Source: Parolsenella catena
Lineage (GTDB): Bacteria; Actinomycetota; Coriobacteriia; Coriobacteriales; Atopobiaceae
NCBI RefSeq assembly: GCF_003966955.1
Contig: NZ_AP019367.1
Location: 1,364,001-1,428,000 of the forward strand
Direction of reading: 5' to 3'
Length of the DNA: 64,000 nucleotides
Shown: in pieces, positions 1 to 18,859 of the stretch
How positions within the stretch are numbered: position 1 is the stretch's first letter
How the letters are laid out: each line of letters starts with the position of its first letter
Position numbers and translations under genes: made by a program
Notes under the pieces: model-generated
Told to the model about the DNA's origin: nothing
Seen by the model: the letters and a program-made list of their open reading frames with translations, nothing else
Database searches by the model: none

Positions 1-1882
1 AAGGTAATACCAATTTGCACCGTCCTGCAGCCAGCCAGTCCCCATTGCGCCACTGGTCGGATCAAGGTAATACCAAGAGCCACTCTCTGACGCCCAACCC
101 GTCTTCATCGCCCCCGATTCAGACAACAGATACCAGTTGGGACCAATTTGATTCCAGCCAGTCTGCATCGCACCGGAGCTTTCGAACCAGTACCAGGCGC
201 CAGCGATGTAGTCCCAGCCCGTAGCCATAGCGCCAGATGCCTCAAAAAAGTACCAAGTTCCGTCAACTTGCCTCCAACCGACCGCCATCTTTCCGGCGTC
301 ATCAAACCAATACCATGTGCCGCCGATCTTTTGCCAGCCGATCGCCAAACTGCCGTTGGACACGTAGTACCAAGCGTCATTAATCAGACTCCAGCCGGGC
401 CGCAGGCTCACATATCCAACCCACCTGCCATCCGAGGAGAATTCTGAATATTGACCGTCGACGCGTCTCACGCCGACCGCCATTGCGCCAGAGCTATCAA
501 ACCAGTACCATGCGCCGTCGATTAATTCCCAACCGGTCCGCATTAATCCATCGGCATCGAAGTAATACCATGCTCCGCTGATGTTCTGCCAGCCGGTCAC
601 CCTTAGAGAGTCATCACCAACATATGAATATGAAGAATCTTCTTTAATCCACGAGTTGCGTAACGACCTCGATGAATGGTCGAAGAAAACATAACCATCC
701 GCAACTCGTTGCCAGCCTTCTTGGACAGCACCAGGACGGTTTCCTTCGAATGCCACGTAACATCCCGCATAGCTATTGTGCCAAATGGTCTTCGGGGCCG
801 GATCCATGTTGATCCCCATTCCATTCGGATCAAGTTCAACAACAAAAGCTGGTTTGTTCGCCGCGATGCAGTCGTCGCAGTTAAAGAAAAGAGGCCTGAT
901 CCCCTCGAGGGCATTGAGCGTTTGATCCCACAGTAGGTTATAAACACCCGTCTGGAATACGATCTCCGGGGACAAGGTGGCCATGTAGTCCGGTGTATTA
1001 GAGTTGGGCCCACCGTGGTGCCCCAGCTTCATGAAATCAATGTGTCCCAGTGTTTGGGCAAGCCTATCTTCATCGCCATCTGAATTGCAGATATCACCCG
1101 CAAGATAAGCAATTTTTTCCGCCGCTCGCCACCTTTATGCCTAGGGAAATATAGTTAGCATCTGCCACTCCCGCAGTCTCATAAGATGAATCCGTGTTCA
1201 CAAGCTCGATATGTGCATTACCGAAATCAAATTCGGGCCTACATACATTCGAGCCGGGCTCCGGATTCTCGGGGGCAGCTTCGTCAAAATCAAGATATAA
1301 GTCCGCTCCGACTTCTTTTGCGGCATTTACAAGATCGTCGTAGACATACTGGTTATCCCAAAGGCCCCAAGGCGAAGTCAGGTAGCTATCATCGTACCGC
1401 GGCGTATATACCTTGCTTGGCTTGTACTTACGAATAATCAACCCCGCATTGCCAATATGGTCGCTGTGTGGATGCGTGCCGATATAGAAGTCGAAATTGT
1501 CTTCAGTTACGCCAAGAGAATCCAGATATGAAAGAACTTTGTCTTCGACTCCATGTCCGATCGTAGTTCCGGCCCTAAACGGATGGCGAGGATTAGAGCC
1601 ATCTGGATAGTCGCTGCTCTCACCGGAATCGACCATCCCAAAGCGGCCGTTACTCTCAATGATAATTGCGTCTCCTCCGGCACACGAAAGGTCCAGGCTA
1701 CCCCCAGCAAAAGGCAACACGTGAATCCTTGTCACGCCCTCCTCGGCAGAGGCAACGCGTGGCATCGCCAGGATGGAAAGGACTAGCAGAACAAACACAG
1801 CAAGCACCATCTCACAGAAAGACAGGATGCGCTTGGTTTTGAAATAAGCGTTAGCAGGCGCCACCAAAAACTCCTTCGCCAT
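1..1882 (-). CDS. pce: Pce/CbpE-like phosphorylcholine esterase with choline-binding repeats; frameshifted and cut by the window edge
   Basis: Secreted metallo-beta-lactamase-fold hydrolase followed by choline-binding GW repeats. Residues 1-46 form a long signal peptide ending ASA. The catalytic head has the metal motif H137-x-H139-x-D141-H142 (THPHSDHIGN), a second-metal Asp in LAGD and a later LGHHGG. Its stretches DAIIIESNGRFGMVDSG, PDGS and LWDN match what I recall of pneumococcal Pce (CbpE), which removes phosphocholine from teichoic acid. About a dozen repeats follow and run off the left edge. Frame is lost at a run of six A (plus strand T, 1113-1118). The natural frame stops at 1094; with five A it continues GGKIAYLAGD and stays open to base 1. 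This is either a real inactivating or phase-variable indel or a homopolymer sequencing error. Family call is strong; substrate is inferred from homology and the lic genes beside it. Confidence 0.85.
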
Positions 1883-2001: not shown

Positions 2002-2062
2002 TGAACGCATAGCCTACTTACATCCATTGGCACAAACCTTTGGATATGTCCTAGGGAGCATC

Positions 2063-3829
2063 ATGCTCGATAAAAAATCATTCACCGTTCTCAACGCCCT
2101 TCGTCAGACCCCGGGCACCAGCCAGCGCGATATCGCAGCTTCCTCTGGACTTTCGCTCGGCACCGTCAACGCGGCAATGAAGGCCACCATCAAGGCCGGA
2201 CTCGTTCAAGATGGAACTCTCACAAGCGCCGGCCTCCAGGCGCTCGCGCCCCACAAGGTCGAAAACGCCGTCATCATGGCCGCCGGCCTCTCCTCTCGCT
2301 TTGCCCCCATCTCGTATGAGAAGCCCAAGGGCCTGCTCAAAGTTCGCGGAGAGGTCCTCATCGAGCGCCAGATCGAACAGCTCCTCGAAGCAGGCATTAC
2401 GGATATCACCGTGGTCGTGGGCTACAAGAAGGAGTACTTCTTCTACCTCCGCCAGAAATACGGTGTCAATATCGTCAACAATGACGAGTACGTCTCTCGC
2501 AACAACAACGGCTCGCTTTATCGAGTCCGCGAAAAGCTCGGCAATACCTACGTCTGCTCCAGCGACGATTACTTTACCGAGAACCCGTTTGAGCCTTATG
2601 TCTACAAGGCCTACTACTCCGCGCAGTACGCCGCGGGCGACACTAAGGAATGGTGCATCACCACGGGTGCTCAGGACCGAATCACCAAGGTCGTTGTCGG
2701 AGGCTCAAACTCTTGGTACATGCTCGGGCATGTCTACTTTGACCGCACGTTCTCGAAGCGCTTTGCCGAAATTCTCGAAAGCGAGTACAACGACCCGGAG
2801 ACCGTCGACAAACTGTGGGAAGACCTCTACATCGACCACATCAAGGAACTCGATATGACGATGCGCCCCTACCCCGCTGGCGTCATCAACGAGTTTGACT
2901 CTCTTGACGAACTTCGCGCCTTTGACCCGCATTTCCTTGAGAACGTCGACTCTGAAATCTTTGACAACATCACGGAAATCCTTGGGTGCACCAAGGCGGA
3001 GATTCATGATGTCTACCCCCTCAAGCAGAGTCTTACGAATCTCAGCTGCCACTTTGCCACCAACGATGGCGAGTATGTCTATCGTCATCCCGGCGTAGGC
3101 ACAGAGCTGCTCGTTAACCGAGCTAGCGAATATGCAGCGCTCAAGAAGGCCAAGGAGCTTGGCCTTGACGACACGTTCATCCACGAGGATCCCGAACGCG
3201 GTTGGAAGATCTCGAAGTTCGTGACGAATGCGAAGCAACCGGATCCGCACGATCAGACTCAGATGGCTCGCATGATGCGGATCTGCCGCACCCTCCATGA
3301 GTCAGGCGCAAGCGTTGAGACAGAGTTTGACTTCTACAAGGAGGCAAAGCGCTATGAGTCCCTGCTCCTTGAGAAGGGACCCATCGACATCCCTGGCTAC
3401 TGGGATCTTGCAGGTAAGGTCGACCAACTCGAGAAATTTGTCATTGCCGACGAAGCACCCAAATGTCTCTGCCATAACGACTTCTTTTATCTCAACTTCC
3501 TTATCGACGAGTCTGACAAGTACTACCTCATCGACTGGGAGTATGCAGGCATGAGCGACTACGCCAACGACTTTGGCACTTGTTGCGTTTGCTGCGAGCT
3601 CAAACCGAACGAAGTAGATGCCGCACTCGATGCTTATTTTGGCCGCCCCGCCACAAACGCAGAGCGCACCCACAACTATGCCCACATCGCACTCGCAGGC
3701 TGGTGCTGGTATCTCTGGGCGCTTCTGAAGGAAGCCGAGGGCGACTTCGTTGGCGAATGGCTCTACATCTACTACAACTACGGCACCGAGTACCTTACGA
3801 AGGCTCTCGCTCTCTACAAGGAGGACTAG
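2063..3829 (+). CDS. licCA: HTH - phosphocholine cytidylyltransferase (LicC) - choline kinase (LicA) fusion
   Basis: Single 588-residue protein with three parts. Residues about 1-60 are a winged-helix/HTH of MarR-like sequence (TSQRDIAASSGLSLGTV). Residues about 68-290 are a LicC-type nucleotidyltransferase with AAGLSSRF and the KPKGLL lysine motif, which makes CDP-choline from phosphocholine. The rest is a LicA-type choline kinase with the Brenner-like HNDFFYLN (about residue 471) and IDWEYAG (about 490). Both reactions lead to phosphocholine decoration of surface glycopolymers. I chose the ATG at 2063, preceded by AGGGAG; an upstream TTG at 2027 lacks a good ribosome site. licB follows after 2 bases. 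The HTH suggests autoregulation, but this is inference. Confidence 0.93.
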   Translation: MLDKKSFTVLNALRQTPGTSQRDIAASSGLSLGTVNAAMKATIKAGLVQDGTLTSAGLQALAPHKVENAVIMAAGLSSRFAPISYEKPKGLLKVRGEVLIERQIEQLLEAGITDITVVVGYKKEYFFYLRQKYGVNIVNNDEYVSRNNNGSLYRVREKLGNTYVCSSDDYFTENPFEPYVYKAYYSAQYAAGDTKEWCITTGAQDRITKVVVGGSNSWYMLGHVYFDRTFSKRFAEILESEYNDPETVDKLWEDLYIDHIKELDMTMRPYPAGVINEFDSLDELRAFDPHFLENVDSEIFDNITEILGCTKAEIHDVYPLKQSLTNLSCHFATNDGEYVYRHPGVGTELLVNRASEYAALKKAKELGLDDTFIHEDPERGWKISKFVTNAKQPDPHDQTQMARMMRICRTLHESGASVETEFDFYKEAKRYESLLLEKGPIDIPGYWDLAGKVDQLEKFVIADEAPKCLCHNDFFYLNFLIDESDKYYLIDWEYAGMSDYANDFGTCCVCCELKPNEVDAALDAYFGRPATNAERTHNYAHIALAGWCWYLWALLKEAEGDFVGEWLYIYYNYGTEYLTKALALYKED

Positions 3830-3831
3830 CG

Positions 3832-4770
3832 ATGAAGTTCGGATTATTCAGCGGAATTCTCTGGGGCCTCGACACGGTAGTGCTTGGTATCGCCCTCTCA
3901 ATGAGCCCTTACATCGGTACGGCAGAGGCCGTTGCCTGCGCCGCAATTGCGAGCTCGTTTCTTCACGATGCGGCATGCGCTTTCTGGCTTGCTATCTACA
4001 TGGGCGTCCGTGGGCGCTTCAAGGACACGCTCGCGGCGCTTAAGACCAAAAGCGGCCTCATCGTTGTTGCGGGTGCCCTGCTCGGCGGCCCCATCGGCAT
4101 GACGGGCTACGTCCTTGCAATCAACAACATCGGTCCGGCCTACACGGCCATCATCTCTGCCTTCTACCCCGCACTCGGCGCTTTCCTCTCATTCGTCCTT
4201 CTCAAGGAGAAGATGAGCGCCAAGCAGATTGCCGCGCTTGTCGTTGCTTTGCTCGGTGTCATGGCAACTGGATACATCTCTGCCGGCGATGCCGAAATGG
4301 GCAATACCGCGCTCGGCCTCGCAGGTGCTGTGCTGGCCGTGATTGGCTGGGGCTCCGAAGCCGTTCTCTGCGCCTGGGGCATGAAGGACGATGCCGTTGA
4401 CAACGAGACCGCACTCCAGATTCGCGAAACGTCCTCCGCGCTCGTCTATGCAATCGTCGTGCTCCCGCTTTTTGGCGCATGGGGCTTCACGGCAACCGCG
4501 ATACCCAGCCTCGCCACTAGCGTAGTCGCACTTTCCGGACTTGCCGGCGCGGCCTCGTACCTCTTCTACTACAAGGGGATCTCGGTCATTGGCGCCGCAA
4601 AGGCAATGGCGCTGAACATCTCGTACTCGGCCTGGGCAGTAGTCTTCGGCTTCATTCTCCAAGGTACCGTGCCGAGCGTTGCGACCATTTTCTTCTGTGT
4701 TCTCATCCTCGTGGGCACCGTCCTTGCCGCGTCGGACTGGAACGAGCTGTTCGGCCGCAAGGCGGCATAG
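3832..4770 (+). CDS. licB: LicB-type choline transporter (DMT/EamA superfamily)
   Basis: A 312-residue hydrophobic protein with about ten predicted membrane segments in two EamA-like halves. GPAYTAIISAFYPALGAF and FVLLKEKM are typical of the first EamA repeat, and YLFYYKGI lies in the second. Location two bases after the LicC-LicA stop codon, in one transcription unit, is the classical lic arrangement, so uptake of free choline for the kinase is the likely role. The unit ends at the hairpin just downstream. Choline specificity rests on context; the DMT superfamily assignment is clear. Confidence 0.88.
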   Translation: MKFGLFSGILWGLDTVVLGIALSMSPYIGTAEAVACAAIASSFLHDAACAFWLAIYMGVRGRFKDTLAALKTKSGLIVVAGALLGGPIGMTGYVLAINNIGPAYTAIISAFYPALGAFLSFVLLKEKMSAKQIAALVVALLGVMATGYISAGDAEMGNTALGLAGAVLAVIGWGSEAVLCAWGMKDDAVDNETALQIRETSSALVYAIVVLPLFGAWGFTATAIPSLATSVVALSGLAGAASYLFYYKGISVIGAAKAMALNISYSAWAVVFGFILQGTVPSVATIFFCVLILVGTVLAASDWNELFGRKAA

Positions 4771-4857: not shown

Positions 4858-7393
4858 TTAAACGAACGGCCGCAGAACACCTCGAATATCAGACCTATAT
4901 GTCGCCGAAGCTATACGCGTACCCAAGCGAGGGCTTGCCGCCTCAATGATTCGGCCGTTGCCGATGTAAATGGCAACATGGCCCGAGTAGCAAACGATAT
5001 CACCTCTCTGTGCCTGCGAAAAATCAAGGTGAAGGAACCCGCTATAGTTCCAAAGGTCGTTGGCATAGTGGTCATGCCCTGGCGTGAAGTAGTGATCATA
5101 GGGGTTCATCGGGAACGTATCGACCCCGCACGCATATAGGCACTGGAGCACGAGGCCAGCACAGTCAACGCCAACGCCAGGTGCGCAAGCATAGTCCCAA
5201 ATATAAGGTGTACCAAGGTACTCATACGCTCGCCCAACGAACGCATTGATACAGTCCTCGCGGGTAGCGTCAACCGATATGCGTGACGGCGTTGCATAGG
5301 CAAACTTACCAGAGCTATAGCTTGGCAGCGTCACGTTCCAGGAGCTTACCTGTGGATACTGAGAGGGATTCTGCCAGCCGACCTTGTCACACGTACCGTC
5401 AGTCCAGAAATAGCGACGATATCCGTCAATGTAGCGGGCACCCGTTGCCATACGGCCGCTTCCGTCAAGCCAGTAGTACTTTCCGCCCAGCTCGAGCCAG
5501 CCCGTTTTCATTGTTCCGTCGCTGTTCATGTAGTACCAGGCGTCATTTGGGACCCGCACCCACCCGGTTGCCATTGCTCCATCATCGCGGAGCCAATACC
5601 AAGAGCCGCCATCCGAAAGCCAGCCCGTCTTCATCACATATGTCATCGGATCGAAGTAATACTGCTGGCCGTCAATCAATATCCAGCCCGAGCTGAGCTT
5701 GCCCTCCGCATCCGCGTAGAACCGAGACCCGCCAAGGTCAATCCAGCCAGAGGCAAGAGAGCCATCCCCCAACGTCAGCACACCGTCACGAAGCGTCAGC
5801 GCAGAGAGCGAGCCATCGCTAGATGCCCAGCTCTTAGAGCCATCTTCGTTGTCAACCCATGCGTTTCGGGCAACGCCAGAGCCGGCATCAATCTGATACG
5901 CCTTTCCATCGATTTCGATACGCCCCAGCTTCGCCGGATGTCTTGTTCCCACGGTTTCGGAGCTAATAGTGCTCGGATCAAAGTAAAAACGACCGGACGG
6001 GGTGTCCACCCATCCAGAAACGCACAGTCCGGAGCCATTAAGCCAGTACTTGCTTCCGTTGTCGTCCAACAAAGTAGAGGAAAGCATCCCACCGGAGCCA
6101 GACAGGTAGTAGCTACCGTCTCGGAAATCAAGCCAACCGGTCAGCATCTTGGCAGTAGTTGGGTCCATCCAGTACCAAGAGCCGCCTATGAACTGCCAAC
6201 CCATGAGGAGTCTGCCATCATTGCTGCTGGGCGTTGCGTAGTACCAGCATTGATTGGCATCGTCCCATGCCCAGCCAGTTGCCATGGCACCCGAGGAAGT
6301 CAAGAAGTACTTGGAATCCCCAAGGCTAAGAACGCCGGTTCTCATCGCATAGTCTGACCAGTCCATCCAGTACCAGGCCCCGTTAATCCAACGCCAGCCG
6401 GCTTGAAGGGCACCAGAGGAGCTGGCAAGATACCATCTCCCATTGACCAAGCACCAGCCTGAGCTCCCCATGCCACAGGAAGAGTCAAAGACGTAGCTCT
6501 CGGAGCCAACCTGGGCTACCTCGTTCTGGGCGGCAGCACCAGAGCCGCCAAGCCAATACCAAATACCACCTTGGTAGAGCCAGCCTGTAGCCATGGTGCC
6601 ATTGGAATAGAGATAGTACCAGCATCCGTCAACATACTGCCAACCGGTGAGCATGGCCCCAGACGGACTCATGCAGTACCAGGCGCCGCCATCCCAGACC
6701 CAGCCGGTTGCCATTTTGCCATCAGTGGGGTTCAGCCAATACCAGTTACCGTTAATCCAGTGCCAGCCGGTCTGCAGCGCGCCTTGAGAAGCCCAGTACC
6801 ACTCAGCATCATCCAGCACCCAGCCATCCGCATAGCCGAGCCACTTTCCCTGTCCATCAAATCGAGACCAGCGTCCCTCGGCAAATGCCTGGTTTATAGC
6901 CATCTTGCCCGAAGTCACATCGAACCAGTACCATGCGCCGTCAAGCAGCTGCCAGCCAGTCTGCATGACCCCTGAGCCAGGAGAAAAGTAATAACGTGCC
7001 CCCATCGATATCTTGGAACCCCGTGAGCACGGCTCCATCGGAAGAGAAACGGTAACGGGCACCGTTTAGTTCAAGCCACTCGTCTTTTAGAGGTGCACCG
7101 TCCTTCCAATATTCACGGCCGGCATCCGTGTCAACCCAGCCGTCAGGCGTTGACGGCGCCTCGGATACCCCAGTTGAGGTGACAGGGTCATCCGCTGACG
7201 AGGTAGTTGGCCCAGCAACTGCAGACGGAGCCTCATCGCTCGCACTCATAGTTACCAGCGAAGCGTCTGCTCCGTTCTCGATGCCAGGCACGTCATCCGT
7301 TGTCACCTGCCCAGCAAGCGCCGGAACAGGACGGATGAGAGCCGCCATCATCAGTCCGGCCACCATGGGAAATGCAGCTTTCTTAAATCTCAC
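4858..7393 (-). CDS. Choline-binding NlpC/P60 peptidoglycan hydrolase, frameshifted near the N-terminus
   Basis: If read through, an 844-residue secreted protein. It starts at a GTG (7393) with GGAGG six bases upstream. A signal peptide ends near PALAG, then comes a low-complexity Ser/Thr/Ala/Asp linker, a long array of GW choline-binding repeats, and a C-terminal NlpC/P60 domain with catalytic Cys in VDCAGLV and His in GHVAIYIG. It probably cleaves peptide stems while docked on phosphocholine. Frame breaks at a run of five G (plus strand C, 6999-7003): four G would give IDGARYYFSPGSG, a normal repeat. The downstream part alone (4858-7062) has no signal peptide. This is the second homopolymer frameshift in this locus. 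Confidence 0.88.
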
Positions 7394-7551
7394 TATTGTC
7401 CTCCCACCTTGGGCAACCCAACGCAGCCACTGAAGGCCGAAACTACTCCGCTAAATCAAAAACATATTAGCAACTTAGGCTCCTCCTCCCTTAAGAGAAT
7501 CTGAAAGGAATAGACTTTACCTGCAAAAAAGGGGGGAATGGAAGGGACAGT
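7394..7551. other. Divergent promoter region of two choline-binding protein genes
   Basis: 158 bases separate the divergent NlpC/P60 and CHAP-like genes. It carries the GGAGG of the minus-strand gene. ATAGACTTT near 7510 recurs upstream of the L,D-transpeptidase gene near 9714, so it may be a shared promoter element. No convincing -35 pair was found. Confidence 0.35.
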
Positions 7552-9690
7552 ATGAACAGAGCACAACGATTGCTAGCGCTAGGCTCATGCCTTGCGCTCT
7601 GCGCTTCTGCGGCAGTGGCAATTCCAAACACCGCGTCAGCAGAAACCGTCGCGAACTTGCCTCAGCCCGCTTCGGAAACGATCGAGACTCCCTCTCCAGA
7701 AGAGAACAAGGCCCAAAGCGACAGCGTAACGGCAAGCGCTGAAGCCGAGGGCGAGACGCCCACATCGGCGACCGAAAGGGAGCCCGTTGCCGAAGAAGTA
7801 CCAGACGGTTGGCACGGCGGCACCGGATCCCTCTGGTATCAGCAGGACGGAGAGAGGCTAACCAATCGTTGGTTATACGACAACGGAAGCTGGTTCTACT
7901 TCTCTGAGGAGGGAGTTGCCCTCACCGGCGTTCAGAAGATTGACGGCTCTCTTTACTGCTTCGATAACGATGGCCGCATGCAGGCTGGCTGGACGCTCTG
8001 TGATGGCACCTGGTATCACGCCAAGTCCTCTGGAGCTCTCGACATCGGCTGGCTTTACACGGGCGGGAGCTGGTATCTTCTCGCCGATGACGGCTCGATG
8101 TTGACCGGGATCCAAGAGATTAACGGCAGCAGCTACCTCCTCCAGGCCAACGGAGCCATGGCCACGGGCTGGGGCGTCGACCCCGCGTCGGGTCGCTGGT
8201 GCTTCGCAGACGCCTCGGGTTGTCTCAAGACCGGTTGGCAATATATAAGCGGCACGTGGTACCTGATCGGTGACGACCACCTTATGCTGACGGGCCTCCA
8301 AACGCGCGGCGATGCAGCCTACTATCTGCAAGATTCGGGCGCCATGGCAACCGGTTGGGCGTGGGACTCATCCAGTATGTCCTGGTACCTCGCCAATGGC
8401 TCGGGCGCGCTCGCATCCGGTTGGCAGCGGGTTAGCGGCAGCTGGTACTGGCTCGACCCGCAGTCAAAGGCCATGGGCACGGGATGGCTCAATCTTGATG
8501 GTGCAAGGTATCACCTCTCCGGATCCGGAGCCATGGACACCGGGTGGCTGCTCGATGCTAGAAGCTGGTACTGGCTTGATCCCTCCGTCGGAAACATGCG
8601 CACCGACTGGCAGAGGGTTGGTGGTAGCTGGTACTTCATGGACGAGGCAGACGGTAGGATGCACACTGGCCTGCTCAACCTTAGTAGCGCCAAGTACTAC
8701 ATGACGCCCTCGGGCACCATGGCAACGGGCTGGGCCTATGATGAGAGCAGCTCATGTTGGTATCTCGCCTCAAGTGACAGCTCGGACGGACGCCTGCTCA
8801 CTGGATGGCAGAAGGTTGGTTCAACCTGGTACTATCTGCGCCCAGACAATGCTCAAATGTTCACCGGCTGGTACCAAGAGGGTGACGCCCTTTATTTCCT
8901 CAAGTCATCCGGCGCGATGGCCGCAAATGAATGGGTCGATTACATCGGCGACACAAGGCTCTACATGAGCGCCGATGGCCATGCAACGTTCGAAATGCGG
9001 AATGGCCTTATCTACAAGAACCGCAATTCGGACGAGCTTGCATCGGGTTGGGTAAGGCAGGACGACTCCTGGCTGTACATCAATCAAGATGGATCCCTGG
9101 CTAAGGGATGGCTCAACCTCAACGAGACTTGGTACTATCTCGACCCGAATAATGGCACCATGCGCACCGGCTGGGTCTTGGTCGATGGCCTGTGGTACTG
9201 GCTTGACTCCTCTGGCGCAATGGCCACCGGCTGGACAAATATCGGCTCTTCGCGCTGGCAGCTCGATGATTACACCGGGGCACTCCACGAGCCCGAGCAG
9301 GCACCTTCGACCGACCTCCAGAGAAGAATCGTAGAGGCTGCTGGAGTCACCCCTAGCCCGGGAGGCGGACTTTGCGCTATGTGGGTCAGCCAAGTCTTCT
9401 CCCGTGCGGGCCTCGGGTATCCAGAGGGCAACGCCTGCGATATGTTCTGGCAGTGGTGCAGCCGCTCCGACCTTCGTGAGCTCAAGGTTGGCATGATCGT
9501 TGCCATCCCATCCCACACCCATACCTATCTCGGTGGCATCTATGGGCATGTCTGCATCTATATCGGCGGGGGCATGATCATGGACAATGTTGGCTATGTC
9601 CGCACCATGCCGCTCAACGACTGGCTCGAGTACTACACAACCACGCACAGCCCCAAGTGGGGGTGGTGCAACAACCAGCCGCTTTCTTAA
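7552..9690 (+). CDS. Choline-binding protein with C-terminal CHAP/NlpC-like cysteine peptidase domain
   Basis: A 712-residue secreted protein. A signal peptide (residues 1-30, ending TASA) precedes an acidic Glu/Ser/Thr-rich linker (about 30-85), more than twenty GW repeats of the G-x-WYYL-D-x-x-G-x-M-x-TGW type, and a C-terminal domain from about residue 585. That domain has a likely catalytic Cys in GLCAMWVSQVF, His in YGHVCIYIG and a downstream Asn/Asp region, fitting a CHAP or NlpC/P60-superfamily amidase or endopeptidase. It probably cuts peptidoglycan while attached to phosphocholine. Neighbours are related proteins, each with a different catalytic head. The exact subfamily is uncertain. 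Confidence 0.85.
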   Translation: MNRAQRLLALGSCLALCASAAVAIPNTASAETVANLPQPASETIETPSPEENKAQSDSVTASAEAEGETPTSATEREPVAEEVPDGWHGGTGSLWYQQDGERLTNRWLYDNGSWFYFSEEGVALTGVQKIDGSLYCFDNDGRMQAGWTLCDGTWYHAKSSGALDIGWLYTGGSWYLLADDGSMLTGIQEINGSSYLLQANGAMATGWGVDPASGRWCFADASGCLKTGWQYISGTWYLIGDDHLMLTGLQTRGDAAYYLQDSGAMATGWAWDSSSMSWYLANGSGALASGWQRVSGSWYWLDPQSKAMGTGWLNLDGARYHLSGSGAMDTGWLLDARSWYWLDPSVGNMRTDWQRVGGSWYFMDEADGRMHTGLLNLSSAKYYMTPSGTMATGWAYDESSSCWYLASSDSSDGRLLTGWQKVGSTWYYLRPDNAQMFTGWYQEGDALYFLKSSGAMAANEWVDYIGDTRLYMSADGHATFEMRNGLIYKNRNSDELASGWVRQDDSWLYINQDGSLAKGWLNLNETWYYLDPNNGTMRTGWVLVDGLWYWLDSSGAMATGWTNIGSSRWQLDDYTGALHEPEQAPSTDLQRRIVEAAGVTPSPGGGLCAMWVSQVFSRAGLGYPEGNACDMFWQWCSRSDLRELKVGMIVAIPSHTHTYLGGIYGHVCIYIGGGMIMDNVGYVRTMPLNDWLEYYTTTHSPKWGWCNNQPLS

Positions 9691-9762
9691 TTGTCCTCCC
9701 GCTCCCCAATCGGGATAGACTTTGAAAAGCAAGGATCCTAGACGTTACTCGAAAGGAGCAAG

Positions 9763-12093
9763 ATGAGCACCACAAGCAGAAAGGCAGCTGCCTTTATCGC
9801 CGCCTTGGCTCTCGGCGGCTCGCTGAGCGTAGCATCGGTGGCAGTTCCTCGCCTTGCGTGGGCAGATGATGCTATATCCACAGAGTCAGCTGCCCCTACC
9901 GACGAGGTGAGCGCCGCAGGCAATCAAGAGCCCGAGGCCCCCGCTTCCGACGTCCCCGAAGAGCCCGTAGAACAGCCCAAGCAGGGTTGGCAGAACGAGG
10001 ACGGGACAAGGCGCTACTACGACGAGAATGGCTCGATTCACAAGGGCTGGCTCCATCTTGACGGCGCCTGGTACTGGCTCAACGAGACCACCGGAAACAT
10101 GGCCACGGGTTGGCAGTACGTAAACGGCTCCTGGTATTGGCTCGACCCCGTATCCGGCGTGATGGCAACAGACCGCACGGATTGCAACGGAAGCTGGTCG
10201 GACTTCTCCGCGTCGGGAGCATGGAGCGGCTATGCCAGCGGCTGGGACCTGAGGGATGGCGCCTGGCACTGGCTTGAGAACGGCGGACAGCTCGCACGCG
10301 GGTGGAGATACGTCAACGGCTCCTGGTACTGGATGGACGATTCCGGCGCCATGCGCACCGGCTGGGTCAGCATCAGCGGATCCCGTTATCATCTCTCAGC
10401 CTCCGGCGCCATGGACTCCGGTTGGCTTCTGGATGGTGGAAACTGGTATTGGCTCGACCAGTCAAACGGCGACATGCGAACCGACTGGCAGTGGATTGGC
10501 GGACGCTGGTACTGGGCAGACCCCGAAACGGGTATCTGCGCCCAGAACGAGACCAGGGAAATCGGTCCGGAGCTCTACGCTTTTGATTCCTCGTGTGCGA
10601 TGGGCCAGAGTGGATGGGTGCTCGCCAACAATACGTGGTACTGGGCTGGACAGTCTGGCGCCCTTGAAAGCGGCTGGCATTATGTTGGCGGATCCTGGTA
10701 TTGGATGGACCACCAGTCCAAGGCCATGGCGACCGGTCTCCTCGATTTCAATGGAACGAAGTACTACATGATGCCCTCGGGCGCCATGGCGACCGGTTGG
10801 GCCTATGACCAGACTGAAAATTGCTGGTATTACGCTACCAACTCCTCTTCTGATGGCCACCTTCTCACCGGCTGGCAATGGATTGACGGCGCCTGGTATT
10901 GGATGGACAGCACCACCGCCAAAATGCAAACCGGTTGGCTGAGCGTTGGCGGTAAGACATACCACCTCTCCAACTCTGGCTCCATGGACAGCTCTTGCTG
11001 GATCGACGATAGCGATGGCAGCTCTTCTCTGCTTGGCAGTGACGGCGCTCTGACGACGAAGATCGTCGATAACAAGGTCACCATGTACAACGGCTCCGAC
11101 GGCTCCAAGCCCTCCGACGGTCTTACCCAGATTGGCGGTGCCTGGTTCTACCTCATTGATAGCACAATCCAGCACGGCGCTATCGACATTGATGGCACAA
11201 CCCACCTCTTTGACGAGAAGACGGGCAGGGCAGTTACCGGCTGGCACACGGACGAGAACGGCGCTCGTTATCACTATGACGAGAAGGGCGTAAAGCAGGT
11301 CGACTGCTGGGTTCTCGATGGCTCATGGTATCTCCTGGGCCAGGATGGCAGCCCGCTAACGGGATGGCAGAACCGGGGAGGTGCCTACTACTATCTCGAC
11401 CCGTCTTCTGGGGCCATGAAGACCGGCTGGCTTAAGACCGACGGCGATTGGTACTGGCTCGATACAACGAGCGGCGCTATGAAGACCGGCTGGGTCTGGG
11501 ATGGCGCCAATTGGTACTACATGAACGCTAGTGGCAGGATGCAGACCGGCTGGCTCAATCTGAGCGGAACCTGGTATTGGCTTGACACCACGAGCGGTGC
11601 CATGGGCACCGGTTGGATCTGGGATGGCGGCGCATACTACTTCTGCGCTTCCGACGGGCACTGGATTGACGTCAACGTTCAGTGGCAGGACATGTTCAAT
11701 TGGGCACAGGACTACTCAAGCGCAACGAACTACCTCATCCTCGTAGACACCCAGAACTGCAGGGTAGGCATCTACTATGGCCGCTATGGCGCATGGGCGC
11801 CTGTAAAGGAGTTCATCTGCTCCCCCGGCGCTCCTTCGACGCCAACCGTGAAGGGCCAGTTTACGGTTCAGGACAAGGGCTACGTCTTTGGCCATGGCTA
11901 CAGCTGCTACTACTACACGCAGTTCTATATCGATTACCTGTTCCACTCCGTTCTGTACTATCAGGACACTTTCCGAATTCAGGACGGACGCCTTGGCCAG
12001 CACCTCTCCCATGGATGCGTCCGCCTTGCAATCGACAATGCCAAGTGGATCTACGACAACATTCCACGCGGAACTAAGGTTGTTGTCTGGTAG
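9763..12093 (+). CDS. Choline-binding L,D-transpeptidase (YkuD family)
   Basis: A 776-residue secreted protein with AAAGGAG just before its ATG. Signal peptide (about 1-36), Glu/Pro-rich linker to about 70, then GW repeats occupying most of the protein. The last 135 residues are a YkuD L,D-transpeptidase domain: LILVDTQNCRVGIYYG start, the conserved His in the FHSVLYY stretch and the signature SHGCVRL with catalytic Cys. It should form 3-3 cross-links or attach proteins in peptidoglycan. Near residues 420-500 the repeats are diverged. A strong terminator follows at 12116. Confidence 0.93.
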   Translation: MSTTSRKAAAFIAALALGGSLSVASVAVPRLAWADDAISTESAAPTDEVSAAGNQEPEAPASDVPEEPVEQPKQGWQNEDGTRRYYDENGSIHKGWLHLDGAWYWLNETTGNMATGWQYVNGSWYWLDPVSGVMATDRTDCNGSWSDFSASGAWSGYASGWDLRDGAWHWLENGGQLARGWRYVNGSWYWMDDSGAMRTGWVSISGSRYHLSASGAMDSGWLLDGGNWYWLDQSNGDMRTDWQWIGGRWYWADPETGICAQNETREIGPELYAFDSSCAMGQSGWVLANNTWYWAGQSGALESGWHYVGGSWYWMDHQSKAMATGLLDFNGTKYYMMPSGAMATGWAYDQTENCWYYATNSSSDGHLLTGWQWIDGAWYWMDSTTAKMQTGWLSVGGKTYHLSNSGSMDSSCWIDDSDGSSSLLGSDGALTTKIVDNKVTMYNGSDGSKPSDGLTQIGGAWFYLIDSTIQHGAIDIDGTTHLFDEKTGRAVTGWHTDENGARYHYDEKGVKQVDCWVLDGSWYLLGQDGSPLTGWQNRGGAYYYLDPSSGAMKTGWLKTDGDWYWLDTTSGAMKTGWVWDGANWYYMNASGRMQTGWLNLSGTWYWLDTTSGAMGTGWIWDGGAYYFCASDGHWIDVNVQWQDMFNWAQDYSSATNYLILVDTQNCRVGIYYGRYGAWAPVKEFICSPGAPSTPTVKGQFTVQDKGYVFGHGYSCYYYTQFYIDYLFHSVLYYQDTFRIQDGRLGQHLSHGCVRLAIDNAKWIYDNIPRGTKVVVW

Positions 12094-12115
12094 AGCCCAG
12101 AGAGCATAATTGTTG

Positions 12116-12152
12116 ACGACCCTGTTGAAGAAATCCAACAGGGTCGTTTTCG
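12116..12152 (+). terminator. Rho-independent terminator after the L,D-transpeptidase gene
   Basis: A perfect 12-bp stem (ACGACCCTGTTG with CAACAGGGTCGT) and 8-base loop are followed by TTTCGTTT. Confidence 0.92.
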
Positions 12153-12166
12153 TTTAGGCAGGCCCT

Positions 12167-12172
12167 TATAAT
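12167..12172 (+). promoter_or_regulatory. Consensus -10 element upstream of the lysozyme-like choline-binding gene
   Basis: TATAAT lies 32 bases before the ATG at 12204, right after the preceding terminator. No good -35 is visible at 16-18 bases, so it may rely on an activator. Confidence 0.5.
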
Positions 12173-12203
12173 GTAAAAATCGCAGCTATGAAATGGAGCT
12201 CAA

Positions 12204-14204
12204 ATGATGAATAGTAAGGCTGCTTTTTTCCTCAAGCACCTGCCAGCGCTGCTTGTTCTTACCCTCTTCCTTGCAGCCCCTGTCAGCGCCAGGGCAGACA
12301 CCCTATCTGACCTCTATGGAACGACACACGACCGCAGCGAGGTTATTGAAGCCGGCGAGGCCGATGACCCCAATGCCGAGCCGGACGATTTATCAGATAA
12401 TGATGTCCAGACCTATTCGCTGGACGACAGCTCTGACATCGCTTTGTATAGCGAGCAAACCCAGTCCGTCTCGCCACGGTACGTTTCATCCGAGATGCTC
12501 TACTTTTGCAAATGGGAGAGCGGGCAAAACTATAACCAGGGCCTTAGCTGGGGCGATGGATACCATGCAATGGGCTACTTCCAGTTTGACAACCGCCATG
12601 ACCTTGGTTCATTCCTAAAGGCAGTCTATGACTATAATCCGTCTAAATACTCAGCGCTTGCAATCATAGGGAGCCGCTATAACTGGGACGTGGACGGTGA
12701 AACGCGTAGTGGCGGCTCCTTCACGCAACTCGGCAATGACCTCAATCAGGCCTGGCATGGCGCCTATGCCGCAGATTCCAGCGAGTTCTCGGCACTTCAA
12801 AATGATTGGGCCTACACGCAGTACTTTGACGGACCTGTCGGCATTCGCGGAAGCCTGCGAGCAATGGGGATCAATATCGACAACCGCTCAGACAGCGTGA
12901 AGAGCCTCGTATGGGGCATGGCAAATCTGTTTGGGCAAGGTGGGGGCAGCACCTACGTTTCCCGCGGACTCTACTATGGTGCCAATTGGTTCATCAAGAA
13001 CTCCGGCGTCAACGGCGCTATGGATGATGGGCAATTTGTTGAAACGCTCTGCGATTACGTTATCAATAATGTCGCCCGACGCTATCCGTCTCAGCCTGAG
13101 TACTGGCAGGGTTGGCAGAATCGCTATAAGGATGAAAAGGCCCATTACCTCTCCGTAATCAGACGATGGGTTTACGAAAGCGGAACCTGGTACCTTGAGA
13201 CTGTGTCCGGAGGAGTTAGAGCCAAGGGCTGGGCATACGTCAATGGCTCCTGGTATTACCTCGATCCCAATTCGGGCGCCATGAGAACTGGATGGGTCCT
13301 TGTTGATGGCTACTGGTACTGGTTGGATTCTTCCGGTGCCATGAAGACGGGTTGGCTACTTCTTGGAGGAACATGGTACTGGCTGAACAGCTCTGGAGTC
13401 ATGGCCACCGGATGGCAGATCATCGGTAGCTCCTGGTACTGGTTCAACCCCTCTTCTGGCGCCATGACCGCATCGAGGACCCTTATCGACGGGCTCTGGT
13501 CAGACTTCGCAAGCGGCGGCTCGTGGATTGGGTATTCCTCTGGCTGGGATACGAGAGATGGGGCCAAGTACTGGCTGGAAAACGGCTCAAGAGCAGCCGG
13601 CTGGCGTCAGATAAGCGGCAATTGGTATTGGTTCGATCAGAGCGGCAAGGCTGCAATTAACGGGACCGTCTCCTTCGGTTCATCGGCTTACGCGTTTGAT
13701 AGCGACGGTCGCATGGGAGAGGCGGGGTGGTGTTTTGCAAATGGCACTTGGTATCTCGCATCAGAATCCGGCGTGCTCGTAAATGGCTGGCAGCGAGTCG
13801 GAGGTGTTTGGTATTGGCTTGACAGATCAACTTATGCCATGAAGACAGGCTGGTGTCTCCTTGGGAGCACCTGGTACCATCTCTCCTCTTCCGGCTCTAT
13901 GGACACCGGCTGGCTCCTCGATGGCAACGCCTGGTATTGGCTAGAGCCCTCGAATGGTGACATGAAAACTGGGTGGCAGTACATCGGAGGAGTTTGGTAT
14001 TACCTCACCCCCAACGGAGGAGCCATGCAAACGGGCTGGATCCTTGATGGGAAGACCTGGTACTTCCTTGATGGCAGCGGCGCTATGCAATCTTCACGTT
14101 GGGTTGGCAACTACTACCTTCTTTCCAGCGGCGCCATGGCAACAAGCCAGTGGATAGGTCCCTATTACGTTGACAGCAGCGGGCGCTGGGTACCTGGGGC
14201 ATAG
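12204..14204 (+). CDS. Choline-binding protein with N-terminal lysozyme-like domain
   Basis: A 666-residue secreted protein. Tandem ATGs at 12204 and 12207 follow GGAG. Signal peptide ends at ARA (about residue 31), then an acidic linker to about 90. Residues about 93-310 form a globular domain with KWESGQNYNQ, GYFQFDNRHDL and WAYTQYF. The Glu in KWESG followed by G-Y-x-QFD resembles the Glu plus substrate-groove pattern of lysozyme-like muramidases, so a glycan-strand hydrolase is my inference. The second half is GW choline-binding repeats, ending in short WVGNYYLLSSG-type units. Which muramidase family it belongs to is not resolved. Confidence 0.75.
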   Translation: MMNSKAAFFLKHLPALLVLTLFLAAPVSARADTLSDLYGTTHDRSEVIEAGEADDPNAEPDDLSDNDVQTYSLDDSSDIALYSEQTQSVSPRYVSSEMLYFCKWESGQNYNQGLSWGDGYHAMGYFQFDNRHDLGSFLKAVYDYNPSKYSALAIIGSRYNWDVDGETRSGGSFTQLGNDLNQAWHGAYAADSSEFSALQNDWAYTQYFDGPVGIRGSLRAMGINIDNRSDSVKSLVWGMANLFGQGGGSTYVSRGLYYGANWFIKNSGVNGAMDDGQFVETLCDYVINNVARRYPSQPEYWQGWQNRYKDEKAHYLSVIRRWVYESGTWYLETVSGGVRAKGWAYVNGSWYYLDPNSGAMRTGWVLVDGYWYWLDSSGAMKTGWLLLGGTWYWLNSSGVMATGWQIIGSSWYWFNPSSGAMTASRTLIDGLWSDFASGGSWIGYSSGWDTRDGAKYWLENGSRAAGWRQISGNWYWFDQSGKAAINGTVSFGSSAYAFDSDGRMGEAGWCFANGTWYLASESGVLVNGWQRVGGVWYWLDRSTYAMKTGWCLLGSTWYHLSSSGSMDTGWLLDGNAWYWLEPSNGDMKTGWQYIGGVWYYLTPNGGAMQTGWILDGKTWYFLDGSGAMQSSRWVGNYYLLSSGAMATSQWIGPYYVDSSGRWVPGA

Positions 14205-14222
14205 TCGGTCCTCTTTTCAAGC

Positions 14223-14258
14223 AAGCGGCGGCGGATGTAGCTCCATCCGCCGCCGCTT
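14223..14258. terminator. Bidirectional terminator between convergent choline-binding genes
   Basis: Perfect GC-rich stem: AAGCGGCGGCGGATG pairs with CATCCGCCGCCGCTT around a 6-base loop, then TTTGTCTT. It lies between the stop codons of two convergent genes. Confidence 0.88.
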
Positions 14259-14262
14259 TGTC

Positions 14263-16320
14263 TTAGTCCATCTGAGCGCAGTTTCTACACTGCCGCTTCG
14301 CGCCAGATGCTAGCACCGATTGAAGCGTCGGATACGTTTGATAGTTCGATACAGATCCCATGGTCCTGCACCAGTGATTGTGATAGACATCGCTGTTTCC
14401 AACTCGATAATAAGGTCCTTGCCCATAGCCCGGAATCCAGGCACCGTCAGAGCCTACATAGTAGGGCCCAATCCATTGATTGGTCGCCATTGCCCCGGAG
14501 CCAGAAAGATAGTAGTTCCCCACCCAAGCATTAGAAGCCATGGGCCCCGAGTCGTAGAAGTAATACCAGGTGCCACCGATAACCTGCCAGCCCTTGGCCA
14601 TCGAGCCATTGCCAAAGAAGTAATACCACGTGCCACCAACGAGCTGCCAGCCGGTTTGCATAGCGCCGGAGCCTTCCATGTGATACCAGGCTCCACCCGT
14701 GCTAATCCACCCAGTCTGCATGAGACCAGAAGAGTCCAGGAAGTACCAGCTTCCGCAATATGAAAGCCACCCAGTCTGCATAGCTCCGGATTGGTTCAGA
14801 TAATACCAAGCACCATTGAGATCCAGCCATCCGGAAGCCATGGCCCCACTGGCTCCCAAGTAGTACCAATTCCCAAGCCACTTCCAGCCGGTGACCATCG
14901 CGCCGGACGGCTCGAGATAGAACCACTGCCCAGAGACAGACTGCCAGCCCGTTTTCATCGCTCCAGACGGGTCGAGGTAGTAGCGAGCCCCACCATCATC
15001 AAGCCATCCGGTCTTCATGGCTCCGGTCGACAGGTCGAGGTAGTACCAGCTTCCATTGACATAAGCCCATCCTCGACAGGCCTGGCCGGTAGAGTCGCAA
15101 TAATACCAAGTCCCGTTATCTAGATTCCATCCGGGGTGACCCGAGGTAAAGCCTTTGGGGCGATATGACGCGCTTACACTAAACGCAGCTGCACTTGCTT
15201 CAAATCTAACGTCAACTTCACTGGAACTCGTTTCCCACCTCATTTCATTGAGCTCGCTAGCCACGATCCCGTTGATGATTCCCGAGATACTCTCTGAATC
15301 GTTTGCATTTGTAGCGGCAACGCTAAACGAGGTCTCCTTCGCATCAAGATGCTGCTGAATCTCCGGTGCATAGGCGTCCGCCCACTTCTGGGCCTCACCG
15401 TTACGCACGAAGTAGTTATTCGCAAGCGTCGTCTCGTGGGCTCCATACGTGGAGCCATCCGAGCCCTTCCATTTGCCATGCGCAATGGCCATAAGATCAT
15501 CGTTCAGGCCAAAGTAGAGATGCCTTTGGTCAAAGCCATACCAGTTATCGCTCGTGTCATCCCACGTGCAATCGACCTGGCACCACTCGTCATCAATCTT
15601 CACGGCGTTCCAGGTATGGCCGTCACCGGCATCGCGGGTCTCCTCATTCTCGATGCCTGCAGTCGCAAGAAGCTTGGAATAGGCCTCCTCATACGCCTGG
15701 CACGTACCCGTCCCTCGGCAAAGCGCACTCTCGGCGCTGCTCCACGTCAAGGAATTGTCATATTCCAGCTGCTCAAGCAGCCAGTCATGGAGCCAGAGAG
15801 CCTTCTCGTACTCGGAGCCATCGGTCTCGGCATTGCACTGCGCAACGGCCTTGGCAACACGATTAGAGACTGAAGGATAGTTCGAATCGGAGACCTTTAC
15901 AGACACGGTCTTGCGAAGATACAGGCCCGTGTTCGCCATGTCCATGACCTGGAACTGGAACTGGTAGGCTCCAGAGGCCATCGGCGTGAACTGATAGTCC
16001 GTCTCGGCCTGAACTCCCGTACAGCCAGGCATGTGAGCCGGGTCCATGACAGAGTCGTAGCTTCCATCAGTGTCGAAATAAAACGGCGCGGACATGTAGT
16101 ACTTGTACTGGCCGCTCCCGCCGCTCGCTGAGACGTGGAGTGTCAAGGGCTGCCCCGCTACGGGATCGTTATACGAGACCGCAAGAGTGATGTCCCCTGC
16201 CGTCTCTGACTCGACATGCGCATGGCCGCCTTCTCCAGCAAACGCCGGACTTGCAAAGGCGCAAACCCCAGCAATTGCCACAAACAGAGCGGCAATTATC
16301 CCGAAGAGTCGCTTTCTCAT
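14263..16320 (-). CDS. Choline-binding transglutaminase-like protein with C-terminal His/Cys motif
   Basis: About 685 residues from the ATG at 16320, which has GAGG upstream; an in-frame ATG at 16359 is less likely because it would put 13 residues before the signal peptide. Order: signal peptide ending AFA, a beta-rich Ig-like region (about 35-150), a transglutaminase-like domain (about 155-310) with Cys in GTGTCQAY, His in DGHTWNAV and Asp in VDCTWDD, a linker, then about twelve GW repeats. The last 50 residues hold VYHNHWCRTM and CRNC, a His/Cys pattern resembling small zinc-binding tails. The catalytic triad is complete, so it may act as a protease or cross-linking enzyme on wall proteins; its substrate is unknown. 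Confidence 0.88.
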   Translation of the reverse strand: MRKRLFGIIAALFVAIAGVCAFASPAFAGEGGHAHVESETAGDITLAVSYNDPVAGQPLTLHVSASGGSGQYKYYMSAPFYFDTDGSYDSVMDPAHMPGCTGVQAETDYQFTPMASGAYQFQFQVMDMANTGLYLRKTVSVKVSDSNYPSVSNRVAKAVAQCNAETDGSEYEKALWLHDWLLEQLEYDNSLTWSSAESALCRGTGTCQAYEEAYSKLLATAGIENEETRDAGDGHTWNAVKIDDEWCQVDCTWDDTSDNWYGFDQRHLYFGLNDDLMAIAHGKWKGSDGSTYGAHETTLANNYFVRNGEAQKWADAYAPEIQQHLDAKETSFSVAATNANDSESISGIINGIVASELNEMRWETSSSEVDVRFEASAAAFSVSASYRPKGFTSGHPGWNLDNGTWYYCDSTGQACRGWAYVNGSWYYLDLSTGAMKTGWLDDGGARYYLDPSGAMKTGWQSVSGQWFYLEPSGAMVTGWKWLGNWYYLGASGAMASGWLDLNGAWYYLNQSGAMQTGWLSYCGSWYFLDSSGLMQTGWISTGGAWYHMEGSGAMQTGWQLVGGTWYYFFGNGSMAKGWQVIGGTWYYFYDSGPMASNAWVGNYYLSGSGAMATNQWIGPYYVGSDGAWIPGYGQGPYYRVGNSDVYHNHWCRTMGSVSNYQTYPTLQSVLASGAKRQCRNCAQMD

Positions 16321-16450
16321 ATGTTCCTCTTCCAACCAGATATAAATAAGGAGTGCCACCCCCTAGACAGGAATGGCACTCCTCAAATTAGCACGTATCA
16401 GGTTGTTTTAAGACGCGAGCGGCGCTCTTGTCCTCAAACGGTTTCGGCGT

Positions 16451-17620: not shown

Positions 17621-18412
17621 TTGTTCTCAGCTTCCGATCACGCGTTCGCCCTCTATACCTACGGAAAATCTCCCTATCTCGGTGAGTGCGTCGAATCCCT
17701 CTTGAGCCAAACGACTAAGTCGCACATCCTCATCTCAACCTCAACGCCAAACGAGAGCATCTCCTCCACGGCAAGCAAGTACGGTGTCAAGCTCTTCATT
17801 AATTCGGGCAAACCGGGAATTGCTCATGACTGGAATTGCGCGATTGAACACTGCGAGACCCCGCTCATCACCATTGCCCACCAGGATGATCTCTACGAGT
17901 TCCGTTATACGGAGCGAATGCTCGACAAAGTAAACAGCTCGGCAAGACCGCTCATCTTCTTCTCCGGCCATGGCGAGCTTCGCCCCGAGGGCAAGGTTAC
18001 CAGCAACAAGCTTCTTAACATTAAGCGCACGCTGCTTAAGCCCCTCGAAGGCGGTCGGCTTAACAGCTCGAGGCTAGTCCGCAGACGCTGTCTCTCGCTT
18101 GGTTCGCCCATCTGCTGCCCTGCCGTAACTTACGTCATGCCCAACCTCAATAAGCCCATGTTTGTGGAAGGTTTTAAGTCTGACCTCGACTGGCAAGCTT
18201 GGGAGAAGTTCTCGCGCACGGAGGGCTCGTTTGCCTACGACCCCGAGGTTCTCATGTGGCACAGAATTCATGGCGGTTCCGAGACATCGGCCCTCATCAA
18301 GGACAACACGAGAACCAGGGAAGACCTGGCCATGCTCTCCCTCTTCTGGCCCAAGCCCGTTGCCAAGTTCATCAATCATTTCTACGCAGCGGGGCAGAAG
18401 AGCAACGGGTAG
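17621..18412 (+). CDS. Family 2 glycosyltransferase
   Basis: A 263-residue enzyme starting at a TTG preceded by a strong AAGGAGG at 6 bases. The N-terminal half has the GT-A features YTYGKSPYLGECVESLLSQT, PGIAHDWN and the acidic HQDD in place of a DXD motif. It is divergent from the polyprenyl-phosphate glycosyltransferase at 17508 and probably acts in the same surface-glycan pathway. Acceptor and donor are unknown. The product lacks membrane segments. Confidence 0.82.
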   Translation: MFSASDHAFALYTYGKSPYLGECVESLLSQTTKSHILISTSTPNESISSTASKYGVKLFINSGKPGIAHDWNCAIEHCETPLITIAHQDDLYEFRYTERMLDKVNSSARPLIFFSGHGELRPEGKVTSNKLLNIKRTLLKPLEGGRLNSSRLVRRRCLSLGSPICCPAVTYVMPNLNKPMFVEGFKSDLDWQAWEKFSRTEGSFAYDPEVLMWHRIHGGSETSALIKDNTRTREDLAMLSLFWPKPVAKFINHFYAAGQKSNG

Positions 18413-18859
18413 ACAAGGCATGTAGAACTCCGGGCAGGCCTCAGACCAAGCTGAGGTCCAGGAAAGAGTCTCAGTACACCGGAGAAGAGCGCAAAGCATC
18501 CCGCGGGATTTCCACCGCAGCAGCCTGGATGCATAATGCGCCCGTGCCTGACGCGCGTGACCGGCCCATGGGCACGCAGTTCGCCCGTTACGCAGCCGAC
18601 GTCAGTCGAAGAGTTGGACCCGGCGAGCCACTTGCTGACGGTCTGCCAACTCACGCCCATCCGACGTGCGGCCTCGACGACGAGGCGCTGTGGGCCAACG
18701 TGGGCGACGAGACCCACGCGACCCAGCGGGTCAGCCTTGCGTTAAGAACACCTTGCGATGAGACCGAGCTATACGGCCACCATTATTCCGAGACGCCATC
18801 GCAGGTATCAGCGGCTCTCAACCCGTCAACAATAGTCGAGACGGAGTTTAGGCTCGGGT
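18413..18859. other. Gene-poor stretch containing a transposase relic
   Basis: About 450 bases between the glycosyltransferase and the membrane pair. Its readable content is an IS481-like helix-turn-helix fragment. The short palindrome ATCCCGCGGGAT near 18500 may be an IS end, but no terminal repeat pair was found. Confidence 0.4.
18600..18741 (-). pseudogene. IS481-family transposase N-terminal remnant
   Basis: The minus strand translates to a segment including LVVEAARRMGVSWQTVSKWL, the typical N-terminal helix-turn-helix of IS481-type transposases. There is a stop just upstream in frame, no start, and the sequence turns to nonsense after WLAGS. No catalytic DDE part is present. It is a small relic of an insertion between the surface-glycan genes and the unknown membrane pair. 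Confidence 0.55.

What the first reader, a model, noticed from the sequence alone, without database searches (positions are those of the whole stretch)
1..1882. Actinobacterial orthologue of pneumococcal Pce next to lic genes
Seen: DAIIIESNGRFGMVDSG, PDGS, LWDN, HxHxDH and the HH-containing LGHHGG in an order matching what I recall of Pce, followed by GW repeats. Its presence 180 bases from licCA suggests that phosphocholine is trimmed as well as added.
Basis: partly seen in the sequence, partly recalled or inferred. Interest (0 to 1): 0.7.

Follow-up and report, generated by a model that had tools for sequence, protein, structure and literature searches.

The report
Frame-broken Pce-like gene in lic locus
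A gut-type actinobacterium carries a relative of the pneumococcal enzyme Pce, which clips phosphocholine off the cell wall, between the genes that make and attach phosphocholine; this copy is split by a frame break, while its sister species has an intact one.

Summary
The reading is largely right. On the minus strand (window 1882 down to 1, ending 134 bases outside the window) lies a secreted metallo-beta-lactamase-fold catalytic module followed by choline-binding GW repeats. Best solved relative: pneumococcal Pce/CbpE (44% identity over 238 residues, all known zinc ligands kept), not ComEC or RNase J. The intact sister-species protein models onto Pce at Z 37.6, against 25.7 for ComEC. Gene order is licCA-licB, divergent Pce, then LicD 47 bp after Pce, just outside the window. 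Context is not chance: 31 of 32 searched genomes with a Pce relative also encode LicC/LicCA; in 298 Coriobacteriia, all 21 Pce-positive genomes fall among 103 licCA-positive ones. Most likely it is a choline-anchored phosphocholine esterase that trims what LicD adds. Two corrections. The gene is split between its two sets of zinc ligands, at a T6 run, so as sequenced it encodes no active enzyme; real lesion and sequencing error cannot be told apart here. 'Orthologue' and activity are not shown. Bonus: an inverted repeat GTTCA-N24..26-TGAAC lies in the shared Pce/licCA intergenic region and upstream of 30 of 45 class licCA genes (0.04 expected), a candidate operator for LicCA's fused winged-helix domain.

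The parts
1094..1882 (-). Pce-like gene, first half: likely signal peptide (cleavage by eye after ASA, residue 46) and first part of the metallo-beta-lactamase-fold catalytic module with HPHSDH
   Evidence: ORF; phmmer 1wra/2bib/12qj E 4e-31 to 2e-30; Pfam Lactamase_B
1..1032 (-). Pce-like gene, second half in another frame (continues to window -134): GHH metal-site motif, end of catalytic module, GW choline-binding repeats; the matching Asp (GD) codon lies upstream of this ORF's ATG, at about 1094
   Evidence: ORFs; PF19127 and PF01473; alignment to 2bib
1094..1140 (-). Frame break between the two halves; T6 run at 1113-1118
   Evidence: intact in sister genome L041:1483-3213
2027..3829 (+). 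licCA fusion: winged helix + CTP:phosphocholine cytidylyltransferase (LicC) + choline kinase (LicA); ATG candidate at 2063
   Evidence: 1jyk E 5e-42, 4r77 E 4e-26; HTH_24 and Choline_kinase
3835..4770 (+). licB-like EamA/DMT permease, probable choline transporter
   Evidence: PF00892; position directly after licCA, also in L004, L007, L021
1972..2006 (+). Inverted repeat GTTCA-N25-TGAAC in the divergent Pce/licCA intergenic region, candidate operator of the LicCA winged helix, overlapping TATAAT at 1996-2001
4858..7062 (-). Choline-binding NlpC/P60 protein (its N-terminus 6941-7393 is in another frame: second frame break)
7552..9690 (+). Choline-binding repeat protein with C-terminal domain of unassigned family
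9763..12093 (+). Choline-binding YkuD (L,D-transpeptidase) protein
12204..14204 (+). Choline-binding protein with VgrG3-like C-terminal domain (possible muramidase)
14263..16359 (-). Choline-binding transglutaminase-like protein

Best explanation
The gene is an actinobacterial member of the Pce/CbpE family. The protein would be exported, dock on choline residues of the envelope through its GW repeats, and use a two-zinc metallo-beta-lactamase-type site to hydrolyse phosphocholine from the surface glycan. It sits in one locus with the genes that take up choline (LicB), activate it (LicA, LicC) and transfer it (LicD), and beside at least five other choline-binding wall proteins, so it would set how many choline anchors remain. 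Shown: family, metal-ligand conservation, repeats, gene order, co-occurrence, intact sister copy, frame break in this copy. Inferred: export, zinc, substrate, trimming. In this assembly the reading frame is broken between the first and second set of metal ligands, so this copy is either a recent pseudogene or a homopolymer sequencing error.
For: N-half best hit Pce 4e-31 with ComEC only 0.3. Read-through protein to 2bib 7e-85, 44% identity over 238 residues; H85/H87/D89/H90/D203/H228/H229 of Pce are all kept (H87, D203, H229 as metal ligands from PMC2916828). These positions are invariant or nearly so in 36 sequences. Model of the intact sister protein: 2bib Z 37.6, rmsd 2.0 over 289 aa; ComEC Z 25.7; RNase J 17.7. 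LicD (PF04991, 118.6 bits) 47 bp downstream; same order licCA / Pce / LicD in the sister genome. 31 of 32 searched genomes with a Pce relative have LicC/LicCA. 21 of 21 Pce+ Coriobacteriia are licCA+, with 103 of 298 licCA+ overall, p 5e-11, and 10 of the 21 lie within 20 kb of licCA by listed coordinates (p about 1e-9 to 1e-11 for a uniform-position model).
Against: The frame is broken in this genome. No enzymatic evidence. Residues that hold the choline group were not compared. Only 21 of 103 licCA+ genomes carry Pce, so it is an accessory function. Pauljensenia hongkongensis HKU8 has a Pce relative but no licCA hit. Co-occurrence p-values ignore phylogeny.
Confidence: 0.85

Rival explanations
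1. It is a Pce-fold phosphodiesterase anchored on choline but acting on another substrate, such as a glycerol-phosphate or phosphoethanolamine diester of the surface glycan, or a host lipid such as platelet-activating factor.
For: Metallo-beta-lactamase-fold hydrolases change substrate easily; choline contacts were not tested; pneumococcal Pce itself also hydrolyses platelet-activating factor (PMC5137146).
Against: 44% identity to Pce over the whole catalytic module and near-exclusive occurrence with LicC/LicCA.
Confidence: 0.1
2. ComEC-type or RNase-type metallo-beta-lactamase protein.
For: TIGR00361 ComEC hit of 24.1 bits, E 9e-6; same superfamily fold.
Against: Score far below the curated 190-bit cut-off; the genome's own ComEC lies elsewhere at 818 kb; no transmembrane channel; Pce much closer in sequence and structure.
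Confidence: 0.01
3. A functionless remnant in this lineage: the gene (of the Pce family, as in the best explanation) has truly decayed in the window species, which then does not trim phosphocholine with it. This is a rival about the state of this copy, not about its family.
For: Frame break between the metal-ligand sets; longer branch than the sister (0.58 against 0.38); a neighbouring choline-binding gene is also broken.
Against: Both breaks coincide with homopolymer runs (T6, C5), typical of sequencing error; all ligands and the rest of the frame are preserved.
Confidence: 0.4

Closest known systems
Pce / CbpE / LytD, teichoic acid phosphorylcholine esterase of Streptococcus pneumoniae (PDB 2BIB, 1WRA, 12QJ)
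   Same: Signal-type N-terminus, metallo-beta-lactamase-fold catalytic module with the same metal-ligand positions, C-terminal series of GW choline-binding repeats
   Different: 44% identity in the catalytic module; the sequence ends soon after the repeats, so the 85-aa C-terminal tail reported for Pce has no evident counterpart; encoded in an operon-like pair with LicD beside licCA-licB; frame-broken in this genome
Lic-1 phosphocholine pathway (LicA, LicB, LicC, LicD) of pneumococcus and Haemophilus influenzae
   Same: All four functions present at the locus by family and best solved relative
   Different: LicC and LicA are fused behind a winged-helix domain in one 600-aa protein, common in Coriobacteriia and Actinomycetaceae
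ComEC metallo-beta-lactamase domain (PDB 9IC4)
   Same: Fold and metal-site pattern
   Different: 18% identity, Z 12 lower than Pce, no repeats or lic context
SpaA of Erysipelothrix rhusiopathiae (PMC7083082)
   Same: Reported there as a choline-binding protein whose modelled N-terminal domain resembles the Pce catalytic module
   Different: That similarity is 17.6% identity and structural only; not compared here

Membership tests
Pce/CbpE phosphorylcholine esterase | Catalytic module closest to Pce among solved metallo-beta-lactamase-fold proteins | tested here: met
Pce/CbpE phosphorylcholine esterase | Binuclear metal ligands (H85, H87, D89, H90, D203, H229) at aligned positions | tested here: met
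   conserved in the family; metal binding itself not measured
Pce/CbpE phosphorylcholine esterase | All ligands on one translated polypeptide (needed for a working enzyme) | tested here: not met
   Window copy frame-broken between ligand sets, so the window copy is filed as a frame-broken family gene, not as a working enzyme; met in sister L041 and in nearly all other relatives
Pce/CbpE phosphorylcholine esterase | C-terminal choline-binding repeats | tested here: met
   PF19127 and PF01473; alignment to 2bib repeats
Pce/CbpE phosphorylcholine esterase | Secretion signal | tested here: inconclusive
   Basic-hydrophobic N-terminus with ASA|EE site by eye; no signal-peptide predictor run
Pce/CbpE phosphorylcholine esterase | Choline-contacting residues of the active site | not tested
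   Primary structure papers not held
Pce/CbpE phosphorylcholine esterase | Releases phosphocholine from teichoic acid | not testable with these tools
   needs enzyme assay
Lic-1 pathway | LicA, LicB, LicC, LicD present | tested here: met
ComEC/Rec2 | NCBIfam TIGR00361 cut-off 190 bits | tested here: not met
   24.1 bits; separate ComEC in genome

The most novel reading that the evidence does not exclude
In Coriobacteriia, addition and removal of surface phosphocholine form one regulated module. A self-regulating winged-helix-LicC-LicA fusion binds GTTCA-N24..26-TGAAC sites and, in the divergent arrangement seen here, would control its own operon and the Pce-LicD pair. The Pce-LicD pair is exchanged together with the acceptor-glycan cluster.
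Probability: 0.3. Interest if true: 0.65.

Novelty: new member of a known kind. Interest (0 to 1): 0.45.

Why it matters
Phosphocholine decoration and its trimming are known as a way for respiratory bacteria to tune choline-binding proteins and host recognition (C-reactive protein; PMC4929436). Finding the complete add-and-trim set in gut-type Actinobacteria, and Pce relatives across Actinomycetaceae and Lachnospiraceae, extends this chemistry to commensals where searches of the held literature found no account of it. It gives a testable locus and an intact sister protein for assay.

Tried and rejected
ComEC or RNase-type identity: rejected. Programmed frameshifting as explanation of the break: not favoured, because relatives and the sister are open through the site; not excluded. 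A first read-through code hit other words and gave stops. No sigma-70-type promoter passed the consensus scan in the intergenic region. A longer palindrome around 1959-1980 looked like an operator but is not shared with relatives; the GTTCA/TGAAC pair is. The choline repeats also match clostridial toxin repeats and glucansucrases: shared repeat fold only, no sign of a toxin. The low-confidence repeat region of the model (pLDDT mostly under 60) was not interpreted.

Full report
What is there. The window is bases 1364001-1428000 of a single-contig 1.797 Mb genome. The same-family genomes include contigs whose lengths I recognise as Olsenella uli and Atopobium (Lancefieldella) parvulum (recognition from memory), so the organism is probably an Atopobiaceae genus with two held species. 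On the minus strand, ORF 1882..1094 holds a hydrophobic N-terminus and DAIIIESNGRFGMVDSG, PDGS, HPHSDH and LWDN. ORF 1032..1, in another frame, holds LGHHGG and choline-binding repeats and ends 134 bases outside the window.

Identity. The N-half alone finds pneumococcal Pce/CbpE (1wra, 2bib, 12qj; E 4e-31 to 2e-30) with ComEC at 0.3 or worse. A read-through used only for searching (P0001) matches 2bib at 7e-85 in catalytic module and repeats, 44% identical over 238 aligned residues, with H85, H87, D89, H90, D203, H228 and H229 of Pce all retained. PMC2916828 names H87, D203 and H229 as metal ligands in 2BIB. Across 36 sequences HxHSDH is invariant, and the Asp and both His are at 90% or more. 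The intact sister-species protein (L041) was modelled (catalytic module mostly pLDDT above 90). VIA-align gives 2bib Z 37.6, rmsd 2.0 over 289 residues, then ComEC 25.7 and RNase J 17.7; Foldseek ranks 2bib and 1wra first. The genome's ComEC is a different gene at 818 kb. Pfam finds Choline_bind_3 and Choline_bind_1 in the second half.

Locus. Divergent from it lie a winged-helix-LicC-LicA fusion (2027-3829; 1jyk 5e-42, 4r77 4e-26) and a LicB-like permease (3835-4770). Downstream of Pce, 47 bp after its stop and just outside the window, is a LicD gene (L002:16958-17818). Further choline-binding proteins follow at 4858-16359: NlpC/P60, YkuD, a VgrG3-like domain, transglutaminase. The sister genome G001 has the same order, licCA / Pce / LicD.

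Is the context more than chance? Of 32 genomes with a Pce relative that could be searched, 31 encode LicC or LicCA. In 298 Coriobacteriia, 21 have Pce and 103 have licCA, and all 21 lie within the 103 (hypergeometric 5e-11; phylogeny not corrected). By listed coordinates, 10 of the 21 lie within 20 kb of licCA, against about half a genome expected. Pce therefore presupposes the phosphocholine pathway, but most licCA genomes lack Pce: it is an accessory trimmer.

The break. The frame changes between HPHSDH and the Asp/His-His pair, at a T6 run (window 1113-1118; runs of six or more occur 0.375 per kb). Neither half alone has a full metal site. The sister protein is one open frame of 576 aa, and so are nearly all other relatives (Schaalia odontolytica L035 has an extra split copy). 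A comparison with the sister genome flags four candidate breaks in 82 kb of this genome, one of them at a non-coding terminator-like stretch. One is in the neighbouring NlpC/P60 choline-binding gene, at a C5 run; three are flagged in the reverse comparison. Sequencing error and recent inactivation cannot be separated with these data.

Evolution. A tree of catalytic modules puts the window and sister proteins among Coriobacteriia sequences, with Lachnospiraceae and Actinomycetaceae sets nearby and pneumococcal Pce apart; many branches are weak, so 'homologue' is safe and 'orthologue' is not shown. Between the two sister genomes licCA is 92%, licB 86% and the choline-binding proteins 77-96% identical. 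Pce drops to 57% (N-half) and LicD to 48%, and the glycan genes beyond (UDP-galactopyranose mutase, GlfT2-like, rhamnose genes) are not syntenic. Pce and LicD thus lie at the edge of a variable glycan cluster. That fits both being matched to the acceptor glycan, or simple hitch-hiking.

Mechanism (inferred beyond the above). LicB imports choline, LicA phosphorylates it, LicC activates it to CDP-choline, and LicD-type transferases attach phosphocholine to a surface glycan (established roles of the Lic-1 pathway). The choline-binding enzymes dock on it. Pce, docked in the same way, removes part of it, as pneumococcal Pce is reported to remove 15-30% of phosphocholine (PMC5137146; PMC4929436 gives about 20%).

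Regulatory extra. The intergenic region holds GTTCA-N25-TGAAC at 1972-2006, overlapping a TATAAT. The same arrangement, spacing 24-26, precedes 30 of 45 licCA genes of the class (0.04 expected in shuffles), often in two tandem copies. Of nine sites in this genome, one is here and one, equally AT-rich, lies 53 bp upstream of the operon with the second wHTH-LicC-LicA-type fusion; the others look like chance matches, mostly in GC-rich sequence. An operator bound by the fused winged helix is the simplest reading; not tested.

Literature. Zhang et al. 2023 (PMC10434233) list Actinomyces viscosus and A. gerencseriae as Lic-1 positive phosphocholine expressers; the words esterase, Collinsella and Olsenella do not occur there. 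Searches for Coriobacteria with choline-binding proteins or licD found no paper in the held library. So this is a new member, in a new clade and locus, of a known enzyme kind.

Noticed in passing
1972-2006: Inverted repeat GTTCA-N24..26-TGAAC upstream of licCA, conserved in 30 of 45 Coriobacteriia licCA genes (0.04 expected), often duplicated about 39-40 nt apart; candidate operator of the winged helix fused to LicC-LicA.
   Followed up: partly
L097 4367-7249 (genome 1126367-1129249): Second fusion of the type wHTH-LicC-LicA-wHTH-LicC in one frame, behind an amidohydrolase gene whose start lies about 53 bp after another GTTCA-N24-TGAAC site (genome 1124828-1124861).
   Followed up: partly
6941-7393 and 4858-7062: The choline-binding NlpC/P60 gene is also split by a frame change, near a C5 run; intact in the sister genome.
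   Followed up: partly
4858-16359: Array of five choline-binding wall proteins carrying NlpC/P60, YkuD, VgrG3-like, transglutaminase and one unassigned C-terminal domain.
   Followed up: no
L002 1-17818: Glycan cluster next to LicD (UDP-galactopyranose mutase, GlfT2-like protein, second LicD, rhamnose genes, CDP-glycerol-type cytidylyltransferase) that is not syntenic with the sister genome; sequence identity drops sharply at the Pce/licCA boundary.
   Followed up: partly
L029 (Pauljensenia hongkongensis HKU8): Carries a Pce relative almost identical to that of Schaalia georgiae (L032) but shows no licC/licCA hit in its genome.
   Followed up: no
L035 5555-9242 (Schaalia odontolytica): Two Pce-like genes in tandem, the second split over two frames.
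   Followed up: no
17621-18912: Glycosyltransferase-type gene (GT2 match in the first half) apparently split over two overlapping frames.
   Followed up: no
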